From contig CP024912.1 of assembly GCA_002813895.1 (NCBI GenBank), forward strand, positions 1,612,001-1,676,000: 64,000 bases of DNA. Direction: 5' to 3'. The notes below the pieces were generated by a model. The model did no database searches. It saw nothing but the letters and a program-made list of their open reading frames with translations, and was not told the origin of the DNA. Below, piece by piece: positions 7,889 through 50,965 of the stretch; the stretch's first letter is position 1, and each line of letters starts with the position of its first letter. The position numbers were made by a program, and so were the translations under genes. The DNA is from Cyanobacterium sp. HL-69. Its GTDB lineage: Bacteria; Cyanobacteriota; Cyanobacteriia; Cyanobacteriales; Cyanobacteriaceae.

Positions 7889-9139
7889 GTGAGCACGGCA
7901 ACTTTAACATCTAGCTTTGACGTAACGGAAAGAGACACTTTTGATAAATACGTAATGAACACCTATGGGCGTTTTCCTGTAACTATCGAAAAAGGAGAAG
8001 GCTGTAAGTTGTGGGATACGGAAGGAAAAGAATATCTTGATTTTGTAGCAGGAATTGCGACTTGTACCCTTGGCCATGGACATCCTGCTTTAATTGAAGC
8101 GGTTACTGAGCAAATCAAAAAACTTCATCATGTTTCTAATCTTTACTATATTCCTGAACAGGGAGCATTAGCAAAAAAGATTGTAGAAAATTCCTGTGCG
8201 GATAAGGTTTTCTTTTGTAATTCTGGGGCAGAAGCCAATGAGGCGGCAATTAAATTAGTAAGAAAATATGCCCATACGGTATTAGAATTTTTAGAAGAGC
8301 CTGTAATTTTAACGGCGAAGTCTAGTTTTCATGGACGGACTTTGGCGACTGTCACGGCAACGGGACAACCCAAGTATCAAAAGCACTTCCAGCCTTTAGT
8401 TCCAGGGTTTGAATATGTAAACTATAATGATATTCGTGCGGTAGAGGAAGCTATTACTGATATTGATGAGGGCGATCGCCGTGTAGCTGCTATCATGATA
8501 GAACCTTTACAAGGGGAAGGCGGTGTGCGCCCTGGGGATTTGGACTACTTCCTCAGACTCAGAAAAATATGCGATGATACGGGCATTCTTCTGGTGTTTG
8601 ATGAGGTGCAAGTGGGAGTAGGACGCACAGGAAAAATGTGGGGCTACGAAAATCTGGGGGTTGAGCCTGATATTTTCACCAGTGCTAAAGGATTGGCTGG
8701 GGGTATCCCCATCGGGGCAATGATGTGTAAAGCTAGTTGTGATGTTTTTGAACCTAGCAACCATGCTAGTACCTTCGGCGGGAATCCCTTCGTTTGTGCG
8801 GCGGCTCTCAAGGTGCTAGAAACTGTCGAGAGTGGGGGTATTTTACAAAATGTTCAGGCCCGTGGAGAACAACTTAGAACCCGCTTAAGGGCGATTGCAA
8901 CTGCCTATCCTCAAATATTTGAAGAAGTGAGAGGTTGGGGTTTAATTAACGGTATTGAAATCAAAGCCGATGCCGATTTAACCTCCATTGAAGTAGTTAA
9001 AAAAGCCATGGAAAAAGGTTTATTGCTAGCCCCCGCAGGGCCTAAAGTAATTCGTTTTGTACCTCCTTTAATCATTTCCAGTGAAGAAATTGACCAAGGG
9101 GCTGATATTTTAGAACAAACCCTGAAGGATTTAGTCTAG
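7889..9139 (+). CDS. argD: Acetylornithine aminotransferase
   Basis: 416 residues. This PLP-dependent class III aminotransferase converts N-acetylglutamate semialdehyde to N-acetylornithine in arginine synthesis. Seen in the sequence: the cofactor-phosphate region NSGAEANEAAIKLVRK, SSFHGRTLATVTATGQ, IEPLQGEGGVRP, the DEVQVGVGRTGKMWGYE segment that contacts the PLP ring, and the Schiff-base lysine in FTSAKGLAGGIPIGAM. It starts at GTG 7889 with AAGGAG at 7875-7880, giving MSTATLTSSFDVTERDTFDKY; that N-terminus is usual for cyanobacterial ArgD. Dual use as succinyldiaminopimelate aminotransferase, known for some ArgD proteins, cannot be excluded. Confidence 0.95.
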   Translation: MSTATLTSSFDVTERDTFDKYVMNTYGRFPVTIEKGEGCKLWDTEGKEYLDFVAGIATCTLGHGHPALIEAVTEQIKKLHHVSNLYYIPEQGALAKKIVENSCADKVFFCNSGAEANEAAIKLVRKYAHTVLEFLEEPVILTAKSSFHGRTLATVTATGQPKYQKHFQPLVPGFEYVNYNDIRAVEEAITDIDEGDRRVAAIMIEPLQGEGGVRPGDLDYFLRLRKICDDTGILLVFDEVQVGVGRTGKMWGYENLGVEPDIFTSAKGLAGGIPIGAMMCKASCDVFEPSNHASTFGGNPFVCAAALKVLETVESGGILQNVQARGEQLRTRLRAIATAYPQIFEEVRGWGLINGIEIKADADLTSIEVVKKAMEKGLLLAPAGPKVIRFVPPLIISSEEIDQGADILEQTLKDLV

Positions 9140-47125: not shown

Positions 47126-50100
47126 ATGTCTCGCATTCTCATTAACCAATACCGCAAAGAATTGGAAAATAGAAAACGTTATGGAGGCAGTACCAATGAA
47201 GGCTCCATTCGTTATGCTTTCGCCACTTTATTAAATGGTTATTGTCGTCCGAGGGATTTTATTCTGGTAGAAGAATTAACCATTGCATCTCGTCTGCAAA
47301 CAAAAATTCGCCTAGATGGCATCGTCAAAGACGCACTCAGACTTGATTGGGGATACTGGGAAGCCAAGGACGAAAAAGATAGCCTTGATGCAGAAATTGA
47401 AGCGAAATTCAAAAAAGGTTATCCCACGGACAATATTTTGTTTGAGGATACCAAAAACGCCATCCTAATCCAAAACGATAACGAATCCATGCGGATTCCT
47501 ATGGATGATGACGATGCTTTGGATGAGTTAATTAATAAATTTTTAGACTATGAAAGGGCAGAAGTAAAAGATTTTCGCAGTGCGATCGCCACTTTTAGCC
47601 AAGATTTACCCACCATAATCGATACTCTTAGGAATTTGATCGATGCTCAAGATCCCCCTATCATATCCCCCTCTCCTACGGGAGAAGGTTTAGATGTGAG
47701 GGCAAAAAATCAAAAATTCATAGAAGCGAGAAATAAATTTCTCAAAGTCTGTCAAGAGTCCATCAACCCTGACATCTCCATTGATGACATTCGAGAGATG
47801 ATTATTCAACACATTTTGACAGAAGATATATTCACCAATATTTTTAGTGATGCTCAATTTCACCAAGAAAATAACATCGCTAAACAACTGAATGAAGTTA
47901 TCAAAACTTTCTTTACAGGCAGTGTTAAAAGAAATACATTTAAAACGATTCAAAGTTATTATAACGCCATTATTCGCACCGCCTCAAGCATCGTTAATCA
48001 CCAAGAAAAACAAAAGTTTTTAAAAGTAGTTTATGAGAATTTTTATAAAGCCTATAATCCTAAAGAAGCTGATAGATTAGGAATTGTTTATACCCCCAAT
48101 GAAATCGTTAAATTCATGGTACAAAGTACCGATTATTTATTAGAAAAACACTTTAACAAAACCCTAGGGGATAAAGGAGTAGAAATATTAGATCCCTGTA
48201 CTGGTACGGGTACATTTATCACAGAAATATTAGATTATTTATTAACTAGAGATGTTGAACATAAATATCAGCATGAGATTCATTGTAATGAGATGTCAAT
48301 TTTGCCCTATTACATTGCGAATCTGAATATTGAATATACCCATCAGCAAAAAATGGGGGAATATTTAGAGTTTCAGAATATCTGTTTAATGGATACTTTG
48401 GATAATAGTAATTTTGCAGGGAAACAATTTGATTTGTTTGCCATGAATCAAGAAAATACGGGCAGAATTAAGCGACAAAATGAAACGGATATTTCAGTAA
48501 TTATTGGCAATCCTCCTTATAATGCCAAACAGGAAAATTTTAATGATAATAATGCGAATCGTAAGTATGAAACTATCGATAAAAGAATTAAAAATACTTA
48601 CATAAAGGAAGGTACAGCCCAAAATCAAATCGTTGTTTATGATATGTACACTCGTTTTATTCGCTGGGCTACGGATAGATTAGCGGATGAGGGGATTGTT
48701 GCTTTTATCTCTAATTCTTCTTTTATTGATGCTAGGGCATTCGATGGTTTAAGAAAGTGTTTGGAGGATGAATTTGATTATATTTATATCATTGATTTAG
48801 GAGGAAATGTTAGAGCAATTTCTGGTAAAGATGGCATTTTTATTTCTGAGAAACATACCATTTTCGGTACTGCTGCTATGACTGGTATTGCAATTTATTT
48901 TTTAATTAAAGATACAAGTGCGGTTAGTAAAAGATTATATTATAGTCATCCTTTTCACATTCATGAATTGAGAGAGAATAAGTTAAATTATCTTAATACA
49001 AATCCTTTTAAGGATATTCCTTTTGAAAGTATAAAACCTGATAAAAAACATAATTGGATAAATCAAACGGATAATGATTTTGATGATTTAATTGCTTTAA
49101 TTGATAAGGATGTGAAGGCAGGTAAAATTAAAACGGTTAGAAATGAAACAACAGGAAAGTTAGAAAATCAAGTTTGTGATGAGGCAATTTTTCAACTGTT
49201 TTCTAGGGGTGTTGCAACCCAAAGAGATGAATGGGTTTATGATATTAATAAAAATAATTTAGAAGCAAAAGTTAAATTTTTAATTAAGACTTATCAGGCA
49301 ACTTTAAAAGATAGTAATTATCAAGATAAAAATAAAATAAAATGGGATGCTGACTTAACTAGCTATTTAAAAAGAGGAATAAAAAAAGACTTTAATAGTA
49401 AACAAATTATTAAAAGTAATTATCGTCCTTTTTATACTCAATATTTTTATTTTGATAAGCATTTTAACGGTAGGACTTATCAATGGTTTAATATTTATAA
49501 TACAGACAATTTAGATAACAAATATATTTCTATACTCACATTAGGGGCTACAAAATCTTTTCATTGCTTAGTAAGTAATAAATTAATTGATTTACATTTA
49601 ACGGGTGATAGTCAATGTTTATCATTATATAGATACGAAGAAGGAGAGAGGATAGAAAATATAACCGATTGGGCTTTGGATTTGTTCAGGGAATATTATC
49701 AACCCTCACCCCCCCAGCCCCCCTCTCCCAAAGGCGAGGGGGGAGAAACTTCCCCATCTTCATCTTCATTCCCCTCTCCTGCGGGGGAAAGTTTAGAGGT
49801 GAGGGCAGATTCTCCTGCGGGAGAAAGTTTAGATGTGAAGGCAAATTCTCTTACGAAAGAAGATTTATCGGAAATAGTTGGTGCAAAGCGTGAAATTCCA
49901 CGAGAGTTATTAGAAAAAGCAAGGCAGTTACGGGCTAAACAAACCCCAACGGAAGTTATTTTGTGGGAATGTTTGCGGGGAAATCGGTTATTTAATTTCA
50001 AATTTCGCCGTCAGCATAATATAGGTTCATTTATTGTGGACTTTTATTGTCATTCAGCAAAATTAGTAATAGAAGTTGATGGTAAAATTCATGAAAAGTC

Positions 50101-50965
50101 AGAACAAAAAGACAAGGATAAAAATAGAGATGAATGGTTAAAAAGTCAAGGCTTAAAAGTATTAAGAATTACTAACGAAATGGTAATCAATAACTTAGAA
50201 GAAACTCTAAATATAATCACTCAAAACTTATTCCCCTCTCCTGCGGGAGAGGGGTTAGGGGTGAGGGTAAATTCTCCTGTGGGAGAAAGTTTAGACGTGA
50301 GGGAAGATTCTCCTGTGGGAGAGGAGTTAGGGGTGAGGGCAGATTCCCCTACGGGAGAAGGCTTAGACGTGAGGGCAAATTCTCCTGTGGGAGAAAGGGC
50401 GCTGGATAGGCAACAACGAATTATTAATAAAGAAGACATTTTTAATTATGTTTATGGAGTTTTACATAACCCCGAATATCGTCAAAAATATGAACTAAAT
50501 TTAAAGAGAGAATTTCCAAGAATTCCATTATATGAAGACTTTTGGCAGTGGGCGATTTGGGGTAAGAAACTGATGGATTTACACTTAAACTATGAAACAA
50601 TCAAACCCTATGAATTAAGAAGGATTGATTTACCCTCACCCCCCCAACCCCCCTCTCCCAAAGGCGAAGGGGGAGTAAAAGTAAAATTGAAAGCGGATAA
50701 AGTCAAACATAAAATTACTCTTGATGAGATTACCACTTTAGAAAATATTCCTCCTGTGGCATGGGAATATAAATTGGGCAATCGTAGCGCCTTGGAGTGG
50801 ATTTTAGATCAATACAAGGAGAAAAAACCGAGGGATAAAACCGTCGCTGAAAAGTTTAACAATTATCGTTTTGCTGACTACAAGGAGGAGGTAGTTGATT
50901 TGTTGATGAGGGTAACTACGGTAAGTATAGAAACGATGAAAATCATTGATGAAATGAATCTGTAA
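47126..50965 (+). CDS. Single-chain type ISP-like restriction-modification enzyme with inserted DUF559 domain and repeats
   Basis: 1,279 residues. An N-terminal PD-(D/E)xK nuclease has D64, E79 and K81 (RLDG ... YWEAKD). The methyltransferase domain has SAM motif DPCTGTGTF near residue 356 and the catalytic motif NPPY near 462 (N6-adenine type). A C-terminal specificity part ends in AWEYKLGNRSALEWILDQYKEKKPRD and FADYKEEVVDLLMRVTTVSIETM. It thus both methylates and cuts DNA as one chain. Three stretches look foreign to the family: a repeat-coded PSPTGEGLDVRA near residue 183; residues about 860-1060, holding two repeat blocks around a DUF559 domain; and PSPPQPPSPKGEGG near 1170. The frame stays open throughout. 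Without them length would be about 1,065, near normal. Whether it is still active is unknown. Confidence 0.9.
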   Translation: MSRILINQYRKELENRKRYGGSTNEGSIRYAFATLLNGYCRPRDFILVEELTIASRLQTKIRLDGIVKDALRLDWGYWEAKDEKDSLDAEIEAKFKKGYPTDNILFEDTKNAILIQNDNESMRIPMDDDDALDELINKFLDYERAEVKDFRSAIATFSQDLPTIIDTLRNLIDAQDPPIISPSPTGEGLDVRAKNQKFIEARNKFLKVCQESINPDISIDDIREMIIQHILTEDIFTNIFSDAQFHQENNIAKQLNEVIKTFFTGSVKRNTFKTIQSYYNAIIRTASSIVNHQEKQKFLKVVYENFYKAYNPKEADRLGIVYTPNEIVKFMVQSTDYLLEKHFNKTLGDKGVEILDPCTGTGTFITEILDYLLTRDVEHKYQHEIHCNEMSILPYYIANLNIEYTHQQKMGEYLEFQNICLMDTLDNSNFAGKQFDLFAMNQENTGRIKRQNETDISVIIGNPPYNAKQENFNDNNANRKYETIDKRIKNTYIKEGTAQNQIVVYDMYTRFIRWATDRLADEGIVAFISNSSFIDARAFDGLRKCLEDEFDYIYIIDLGGNVRAISGKDGIFISEKHTIFGTAAMTGIAIYFLIKDTSAVSKRLYYSHPFHIHELRENKLNYLNTNPFKDIPFESIKPDKKHNWINQTDNDFDDLIALIDKDVKAGKIKTVRNETTGKLENQVCDEAIFQLFSRGVATQRDEWVYDINKNNLEAKVKFLIKTYQATLKDSNYQDKNKIKWDADLTSYLKRGIKKDFNSKQIIKSNYRPFYTQYFYFDKHFNGRTYQWFNIYNTDNLDNKYISILTLGATKSFHCLVSNKLIDLHLTGDSQCLSLYRYEEGERIENITDWALDLFREYYQPSPPQPPSPKGEGGETSPSSSSFPSPAGESLEVRADSPAGESLDVKANSLTKEDLSEIVGAKREIPRELLEKARQLRAKQTPTEVILWECLRGNRLFNFKFRRQHNIGSFIVDFYCHSAKLVIEVDGKIHEKSEQKDKDKNRDEWLKSQGLKVLRITNEMVINNLEETLNIITQNLFPSPAGEGLGVRVNSPVGESLDVREDSPVGEELGVRADSPTGEGLDVRANSPVGERALDRQQRIINKEDIFNYVYGVLHNPEYRQKYELNLKREFPRIPLYEDFWQWAIWGKKLMDLHLNYETIKPYELRRIDLPSPPQPPSPKGEGGVKVKLKADKVKHKITLDEITTLENIPPVAWEYKLGNRSALEWILDQYKEKKPRDKTVAEKFNNYRFADYKEEVVDLLMRVTTVSIETMKIIDEMNL
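47672..47707 (+). repeat. Single 36-nt palindromic repeat unit inside the nuclease-methylase linker
   Basis: TCTCCTACGGGAGA hairpin followed by AGGTTTAGATGTGAGGGC. Same unit and same reading phase (Ser-Pro-Thr-Gly-Glu ...) as the arrays at 49775 and 50237. Confidence 0.85.
49703..49745 (+). repeat. 43-nt direct repeat, copy 1
   Basis: CCCTCACCCCCCCAGCCCCC followed by CTCTCCCAAAGGCGAGGGGGGAG. It codes PSPPQPPSPKGEGG. Copy 2 lies at 50633-50675, 930 nt downstream, with about two differences. Confidence 0.88.
49775..49882 (+). repeat. 36-nt palindromic repeat array, three units (5' of DUF559)
   Basis: Units start at 49775, 49811 and 49847, exactly 36 nt apart, each opening with a TCTCCTGCGGGAGA-type hairpin. 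Translated as 12-residue steps (SPAGESLEVRAD, SPAGESLDVKAN, then a degenerate SLTKEDLSEIVG). Confidence 0.88.
49885..50232 (+). other. DUF559 nuclease-like domain embedded in the restriction gene
   Basis: Residues about 921-1035 of the host protein. The core REIPRELLEKARQLRAKQTP, then EVILWECLRGNRLFNFKFRR, QHNIGSFIVDFYCHSAKLVI, EVDGKIHE and LKVLRITNEMVINNLEETL are those of DUF559 (PF04480), a PD-(D/E)xK or Vsr-like fold normally encoded as a free-standing protein. It sits exactly between the three-unit and five-unit repeat arrays. Function of DUF559 proteins is not established; catalysis is inferred from the EVDG motif. Confidence 0.85.
50237..50410 (+). repeat. 36-nt palindromic repeat array, five units (3' of DUF559)
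   Basis: Units start at 50237, 50273, 50309, 50345 and 50381. The first contains the full palindrome CCCCTCTCCTGCGGGAGAGGGG. Translated as SPAGEGLGVRVN, SPVGESLDVRED, SPVGEELGVRAD, SPTGEGLDVRAN, SPVGERALDRQQ. Confidence 0.9.
50633..50675 (+). repeat. 43-nt direct repeat, copy 2
   Basis: Second copy of the 49703-49745 repeat, in the same reading phase, coding PSPPQPPSPKGEGG again. Confidence 0.88.

What the first reader, a model, noticed from the sequence alone, without database searches (positions are those of the whole stretch)
49775..50410. DUF559 nuclease domain inserted in-frame into a restriction-modification enzyme, bracketed by 36-nt palindromic repeat arrays
Seen: three 36-nt units, a DUF559 domain, then five 36-nt units, all in one open frame and one codon phase (36 = 12 codons), interrupting the C-terminal region of a type ISP-like enzyme between segments that join smoothly in the family (FREYYQ... 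and ...NKEDIFNYVYGVL). Established: DUF559 is normally a separate protein with a PD-(D/E)xK/Vsr-like fold. Inference: repeat plus DUF559 behaves as a mobile cassette that entered and stayed in frame, giving a chain with two nuclease-like modules. The repeat arrays may be what DUF559 acts on.
Basis: partly seen in the sequence, partly recalled or inferred. Interest (0 to 1): 0.82.

Follow-up and report, generated by a model that had tools for sequence, protein, structure and literature searches.

The report
In-frame mobile nuclease with palindromic ends
A small DNA-cutting gene framed by hairpin repeats sits in frame inside a DNA-modifying enzyme, and similar units sit in and between many other genes of distant bacteria, so it looks like a widespread, little-noticed kind of mobile DNA.

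Summary
ORF 47126-50965, a type ISP-like methylase, is interrupted by an in-frame cassette, 49703-50422: palindromic repeats, an intact DUF559 nuclease domain, more repeats. Relatives show a clean empty site (18 of 27 readable loci). In cyanobacteria both flanks share a repeat at 37 of 40 in-frame and 47 of 60 free-standing copies (control positions: at most 3.3%), and at 46 of 76 copies elsewhere. Several free-standing copies are one-gene elements with terminal inverted repeats. The 25 cyanobacterial in-frame hosts scanned are restriction-modification or methylase-like proteins; elsewhere DUF559 also lies in frame in MetH, class I tRNA synthetases and UvrA. The filled MetH is the only one found in 7 of 7 genomes, though all seven lack clear hairpins on both sides. 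The fold matches the homing endonuclease I-Bth0305I. The ISP site is filled at three places on the host tree, by two DUF559 lineages, one shared by two host clades. Best reading: a homing-type mobile nuclease that stays in frame instead of splicing. Cleavage, target and movement are untested. No paper found in the held library links DUF559 to such repeats.

The parts
47126..50965 (+). host gene: type ISP-like methylase/specificity protein, 1279 aa, one open frame through the cassette
49703..50422 (+). whole in-frame cassette (repeats - DUF559 - repeats), absent from relatives
   Evidence: empty-site comparison
49703..49748 (-). left end unit in inverted orientation (CCCTCACCCC... then palindrome)
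49775..49850 (+). 36-nt palindromic units, 2.1 clean copies (a decayed third follows to about 49880, by eye)
49907..50230 (+). DUF559 nuclease domain; residues invariant in 31 aligned homologues are all present
50237..50395 (+). 36-nt palindromic units, 4.4 copies
47668..47705 (+). single repeat unit elsewhere in the same gene, also in the open frame
50632..50678 (-). second copy of the left-end unit (94%) in another loop of the same host domain

Best explanation
It is a mobile nuclease element of homing type. Shown: a DUF559 domain with the predicted fold of the EDxHD homing endonuclease I-Bth0305I is bracketed by hairpin-forming repeats that in several better-kept copies are terminal inverted repeats; here the unit sits cleanly in frame in a type ISP-like enzyme, and DUF559 recurs in frame in many other genes. 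Inferred: the nuclease cuts alleles that lack the cassette at or near its insertion site, and repair from a filled copy inserts it (homing); rarer jumps to new sites use the palindromic ends, and solo repeats are leftovers or non-autonomous offspring. No sign of splicing was found: the insert keeps the frame, the repeats are translated into stretches predicted to be disordered, and the host protein is assumed to fold around a tethered nuclease.
For: Flank association with internal controls: shared left/right repeats 37 of 40 in-frame and 47 of 60 free copies, against 12 of 800 and 37 of 1200 (direct) and 2 of 800 and 3 of 1200 (inverted) control positions. Y-armed hairpins 7.00 and 2.28 per kb within 250 nt against 0.12 and 0.07 at 4-8 kb. 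Non-cyano: 46 of 76 shared (controls 13 direct and 2 inverted of 800), 3.29 per kb within 250 nt against 0.13 at 2-4 kb. Inverted flank matches of score 20 or more in 27 of 60 free copies, several of them long arms around the one gene, some only the palindrome itself. DUF559 identity predicts repeat similarity between different cyanobacterial families, 0 of 500 permutations. Genomes with strong DUF559 hold more copies of one TIR pattern, mean 21.4 (n 138) against 4.2 (n 152), within-family permutation 0 of 2000. Fold: 3hrl and 3r3p (I-Bth0305I, TM 0.65-0.73), more weakly Vsr; profile hit to 3r3p_A E 1.9e-5. Empty, repeat-only (L178) and filled alleles at one site. Filled state needs three changes on the host tree; the G015 cassette (L090) belongs to the DUF559 lineage of the Pseudanabaena-type clade f34 although its host groups with empty alleles. 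Only-copy MetH hosts in 7 of 7 genomes. Model: DUF559 mostly folded, repeat stretches disordered.
Against: No cleavage, target site or movement was observed. No target-site duplication was seen by eye (not tested systematically), and no base-precise empty site was found for a free-standing copy. Three changes may be one gain and two losses. The ISP copies are two DUF559 lineages: beyond its partner L140 (78%), the window copy is nearer to copies at other host sites (L089, 64%) than to the other ISP copies (61%), so one lineage per site does not hold here. Copies without shared repeats: 3 of 40 in-frame, 13 of 60 free, 30 of 76 non-cyano, 4 of 7 further loci. Of 26 non-cyano long-frame hosts 11 lack Y-armed hairpins on both sides, all 7 MetH copies among them. 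Co-variation between cyanobacteria and others is weak (Spearman 0.07). In families f25 and f37 repeat counts do not differ by DUF559. The model of the host region is weak as a whole (pLDDT 63).
Confidence: 0.55

Rival explanations
1. REP/RAYT-like transposition: DUF559 recognises the hairpins, perhaps as single strands, and itself moves the repeats and the gene; homing plays no part.
For: Terminal inverted repeats and hairpins; many solo repeats per genome; repeat abundance and DUF559 presence correlate within families; co-variation; two DUF559 lineages at one ISP site and repeats in other loops of the same gene fit a tolerant landing place.
Against: The predicted fold is that of site-specific nucleases, not of an HUH or DDE transposase. 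At shared host sites the best DUF559 relative is at the same site in 53 of 69 copies (site groups edited by hand, near-identical pairs over 97% skipped).
Confidence: 0.25
2. Domain acquisition by RM enzymes: DUF559 serves as an extra nuclease module for the host enzyme, and the repeats are just linkers.
For: The 25 cyanobacterial long-frame hosts that I scanned are RM or methylase-like proteins. The residues invariant in the family are intact here.
Against: The same domain lies in frame in MetH, tRNA synthetases and UvrA and as a free-standing gene with inverted repeats. Six site groups occur in MmeI-type proteins alone (crude grouping).
Confidence: 0.1
3. Hitchhiking: the repeats are spread by another enzyme, and DUF559 genes were merely caught between copies.
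For: Solo repeats are more numerous than DUF559 genes, and 8 of 152 genomes without strong DUF559 have at least 20 copies of one TIR pattern. RAYT genes were not searched for.
Against: The association holds across phyla and with different repeat families, and repeat and nuclease sequences change together between cyanobacterial families.
Confidence: 0.08

Closest known systems
EDxHD / Vsr-like homing endonucleases (I-Bth0305I)
   Same: Same fold by prediction and profile; nuclease found in alleles that are empty in relatives; one paper already puts a DUF559 gene in the EDxHD family (PMC9403480, passages).
   Different: The review passages I saw (PMC3943268) describe I-Bth0305I as an extended multi-domain enzyme among homing enzymes of mobile introns; here no intron or intein is found, the domain stands alone between palindromic repeats, and the insert is read through in frame.
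Rickettsia palindromic elements (RPE)
   Same: Palindromic DNA inserted in frame in many protein genes (PMC10969869, passages).
   Different: RPEs are about 150 bp and no enzyme of their own is named in the passages I saw; here a nuclease gene is part of the insert and the repeats are its ends.
REP / RAYT (REPtrons)
   Same: Hairpin repeats flank a small gene thought to mobilise them; repeats also sit inside genes (PMC3733652, passages).
   Different: The enzyme here is a DUF559 nuclease, not a tyrosine (HUH) transposase, and the repeat parts of the window cassette contain no GTAG tag on the + strand (one CTAC).
Inteins
   Same: In-frame insert with a homing-type nuclease.
   Different: No intein splicing domain among the Pfam matches of the ORF; the flanks are repeat-derived.

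Membership tests
EDxHD/Vsr-like nucleases | fold of I-Bth0305I / Vsr | tested here: met
   (3r3p E 5e-5; Vsr only E 0.02-0.06)
EDxHD/Vsr-like nucleases | conserved acidic/His residues of the DUF559 family present in this copy | tested here: met
   E16, D45, E56, D58, H62, D71 and the other invariant columns are present; that these are the EDxHD catalytic residues is recalled, not tested
homing endonuclease | cuts the empty allele at a specific site | not testable with these tools
   needs protein
homing endonuclease | repeated gain at one site, with empty and filled alleles among relatives | tested here: inconclusive
   three changes, gain plus loss not excluded; two DUF559 lineages at the site, one of them in two host clades
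group I/II intron-borne homing gene | intron RNA around the gene | tested here: not met
   no intron family; three matches far below gathering scores
intein | Hint splicing domain | tested here: not met
   none among Pfam matches up to E 1
REP/RAYT | Y1 tyrosine transposase as the encoded enzyme | tested here: not met
   the cassette's only Pfam domains are DUF559 and related nuclease models; RAYT genes elsewhere in the genome were not searched
Rickettsia palindromic element | palindromic DNA inserted in frame in a gene | tested here: met
Rickettsia palindromic element | sequence of an RPE family | not tested
   no RPE sequence was compared
type ISP RM enzyme | coupler, N6 methylase and ISP C-terminal specificity domains | tested here: met
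type ISP RM enzyme | nuclease and ATPase domains in the same chain (definition recalled) | tested here: inconclusive
   one search reports neither; aa 1-190 has no Pfam match, so 'ISP-like' is the safer label

The most novel reading that the evidence does not exclude
DUF559 elements are a cross-phylum class of unspliced homing elements: a minimal nuclease gene with palindromic ends that invades restriction genes and conserved genes in frame, survives without intron or intein because its ends translate into harmless linkers, and seeds many of the non-RAYT palindromic repeats of bacterial genomes.
Probability: 0.42. Interest if true: 0.92.

Novelty: new variant of a known kind. Interest (0 to 1): 0.83.

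Why it matters
DUF559 is a widespread family of unknown function (a match at E 0.001 or better in 193 of 290 cyanobacterial genomes; 138 of them below 1e-20). If the reading is right, many members are selfish or homing nucleases with their own palindromic ends. That gives a candidate enzyme for a large pool of bacterial palindromic repeats, explains odd insertions in restriction enzymes, MetH and tRNA synthetases, and offers a homing element that needs no splicing. The empty sites are readable, so candidate targets of compact nucleases can be tested directly.

Tried and rejected
Chance or artefact: rejected (shuffles; internal controls). Ancestral DUF559 domain of all ISP enzymes: rejected by empty alleles in 16 of the 25 tree rows, interleaved with filled ones. 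Intron or intein: no support. RM-only function: not supported because of housekeeping hosts. One DUF559 lineage per host site: my first idea; one search showed two lineages at the ISP site, so it was dropped and the odds for homing lowered a little (0.6 to 0.55; novel case 0.45 to 0.42; the rival RAYT-like reading raised to 0.25, hitchhiking to 0.08). A base-precise empty site for a free-standing copy was sought with L111 in its genus (parts of the flank matched in 5 other genomes of 26) and with L106/L107 (the element is shared by G162 and G244; in the other sister loci L336-L341 homology to L106 stops at 8732-8762 and nothing beyond matches, so the right junction could not be read). Near-identical plasmids were searched without a usable empty site. 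E. coli (L289), Azospirillum (L305, L306) and Sinorhizobium K101 (L304) copies have no shared flank repeats; L303, L290 and L291 do. Literature: the 14 papers naming DUF559 (listing; passages of two of them) and the 20 naming COG2852, PF04480, pfam04480 or ycjD (listing, several plainly unrelated) show none on such repeats by title, abstract start or passages; searches likewise by listing. This covers only the held open-licence library; Taylor 2011 on I-Bth0305I is not held. Rows dropped: 6 of 180 loci (short flanks or stops); 1 of 60 free-standing copies; L073 left out (N runs); one search counts only frames of at least 400 aa and its site grouping is crude.

Full report
WHAT IS THERE. The window holds one 1279-aa open frame, 47126-50965, with type ISP coupler, N6-methylase and C-terminal specificity domains; the last is split in two by a DUF559 domain. 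The cassette runs from 49703 to 50422: an inverted-orientation palindromic unit, 36-nt palindromic units, DUF559 (49907-50230), and more 36-nt units. The repeat cores are above chance, and five of the six perfect cores of the 3.3-Mb genome lie in this gene. A single unit at about 47668-47705 and a 94% copy of the left-end unit at 50632-50678 show that other loops of the same gene also received repeats.

EMPTY SITE. A search of 290 cyanobacterial genomes with the segment left of the site gave 53 genomes with a match; 30 loci were returned. Of these 30, 18 are empty, 8 filled (the window included), one (L178) carries repeats of another family without DUF559, and 3 could not be read across. Empty alleles read for example NITDWGLKQIQTHYQ-DPT-ITKIDIFHYTY (L163), about 9-12 nt where the window has 720. 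In 7 of the 8 filled alleles CCCTCACC follows directly on the host codons (the eighth, L166, has CCCTCCCC); right ends vary more. On a tree of 25 host rows (16 empty, 8 filled, 1 repeat-only) the filled alleles fall in three places; well-supported branches force three changes, which may be gains or losses, and the bootstrap had not fully settled. The DUF559 domains at this site form two lineages: the window with L140 (78%), whose next relatives sit at other host sites, and the five f34 copies with L090 of G015 (68-75%). L090's host, however, groups with empty alleles. So one lineage is shared by two host clades, as homing would give, and the site was probably entered more than once. Over all shared host sites the best relative is at the same site for 53 of 69 copies.

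THE REPEAT LINK IS GENERAL. DUF559 was found in 193 of 290 genomes, some of these matches weak. I fetched 40 regions with DUF559 in long open frames and 60 others taken as free-standing (one, L140, proved to be the frameshifted ISP copy), chosen from the best-scoring rows, not at random. Left and right flanks share a repeat in 37 of 40 and 47 of 60; at control positions in the same regions this occurs in 12 of 800 and 37 of 1200 (direct) and 2 of 800 and 3 of 1200 (inverted). Y-armed hairpins on both sides occur in 39 of 40 and 17 of 60, and in 0 of 2000 controls. Their density falls from 7.00 and 2.28 per kb next to DUF559 to 0.12 and 0.07 at 4-8 kb. Inverted flank matches of score 20 or more occur in 27 of 60; several are long arms around the single gene, others only the palindrome itself. 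In Sinorhizobium meliloti Ak57 the arms are 114 nt (score 102), and the arm's doublet matches at 19 places in that replicon (the 39 places include an IS). A scan of a collection of 84,980 species genomes kept 80 loci, 76 outside cyanobacteria; 46 of these 76 share flank repeats (controls 13 direct and 2 inverted of 800), and hairpin density is 3.29 against 0.13 per kb.

DO NUCLEASE AND REPEAT BELONG TOGETHER? Between free-standing copies of different cyanobacterial families, pairs with 40-50% DUF559 identity share a similar repeat in 4% of cases, at 60-65% in 58%, at 70-75% in 100% (1536 pairs; 0 of 500 permutations as strong). Between cyanobacteria and others the trend is weak. Genomes with strong DUF559 hold more copies of one TIR pattern, overall and within families f28, f34, f35 and f6, not clearly in f25 and f37. 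This fits a nuclease and ends that travel as one unit; it does not by itself prove recognition.

HOSTS. Crude grouping of 83 long-frame hosts gives 13 families and 29 host-site groups. The 25 cyanobacterial hosts scanned, the window's included, are MmeI-like, Eco57I-like, ISP-like, HsdR, HsdS or DUF1156 proteins; for DUF1156 the methylase label rests on matches below cut-off. Elsewhere DUF559 lies in HsdM, HsdR (also in an archaeon, L210) and an ISP protein (L231), but also in MetH, LeuRS, MetRS, ValRS, a class I synthetase that I read as IleRS, and UvrA, and is fused to ends of a His_biosynth protein (HisF by my reading) and of dihydroorotate dehydrogenase. The filled MetH is the only one found in 7 of 7 genomes, six of them MAGs; a PF00133 search shows one frame only that fits the LeuRS of L232 and the synthetase of L255, judged by length. 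So these proteins must work with the insert, unless it is removed by an unknown route. In these hosts the repeats are poorer: all 7 MetH copies, L224 and L252 lack Y-armed hairpins on both sides, while L232, L234 and L255 have them; peptides that look repeat-derived are visible in several MetH copies. Over all long-frame hosts, Y-armed hairpins on both sides occur in 53 of 57 cyanobacterial and 15 of 26 other cases. No intron family and no intein domain was found at the window locus. In an AlphaFold model of the window's C-terminal part the repeat stretches are disordered (block means mostly 26-41), DUF559 is mostly 68-88 with one block at 47, and host helices stand on either side; the model as a whole is weak (mean pLDDT 63).

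THE ENZYME. The DUF559 domain (mean pLDDT 91) matches NGO0050 (3hrl), the I-Bth0305I homing endonuclease catalytic domain (3r3p) and, at weaker E-values, Vsr. A profile search agrees for the first two. One genome paper assigns a DUF559 gene to the EDxHD homing family (PMC9403480, passages), and Caulobacter VsrA contains DUF559 (PMC12907096, passages). The window copy keeps all residues invariant in 31 homologues.

AGAINST. Three of 40 in-frame, 13 of 60 free, 30 of 76 non-cyano and 4 of 7 further loci show no shared repeats. Samples were drawn from top hits. No target-site duplication (by eye only), cleavage or movement was observed. RAYT genes were not searched for.

VERDICT. The most likely mechanism is homing by an unspliced nuclease element with palindromic ends (0.55). 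The parts are of known kinds; the combination was not found in print in the searches.

Noticed in passing
L002 / L148 (G000:C1:3029609-3029923): The genome's only other DUF559 match is a free-standing gene, before an ORF that reads like a pilin, with palindromic repeats of two kinds around it.
   Followed up: partly
L230, L244, L268, L241, L260, L272, L273: DUF559 in frame inside B12-dependent methionine synthase (MetH) of Bacteroidota, mostly between the two B12-binding domains and at another site in L268; the only MetH found in each genome.
   Followed up: partly
L232, L252, L234, L255, L224: DUF559 in frame inside LeuRS, MetRS, ValRS, a probable IleRS, and UvrA.
   Followed up: partly
L085, L198, L210, L211, L212, L215: One HsdR site group is filled in cyanobacteria, a Methanophagales archaeon, Kryptoniota and Brocadiaceae (L085, L210, L215 confirmed as HsdR).
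   Followed up: no
L303:2817-3529: S. meliloti Ak57 DUF559 lies between two inverted copies of a two-hairpin doublet found at 19 places in that replicon; it resembles RIME elements (name recalled, not tested).
   Followed up: partly
L291:2465-2830: On plasmid pAQ6 of Picosynechococcus PCC 7002 a free-standing DUF559 gene with long direct repeats lies just before a DUF1156 gene; DUF1156 proteins are in-frame hosts elsewhere.
   Followed up: no
L140 (G285:C1:704975-705295): A genome of the same family has the cassette at the same ISP site but out of frame, so the host frame is broken there.
   Followed up: partly
L290: A Neisseria gonorrhoeae DUF559 gene is flanked by a direct repeat of about 114 nt that contains palindromes.
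   Followed up: no
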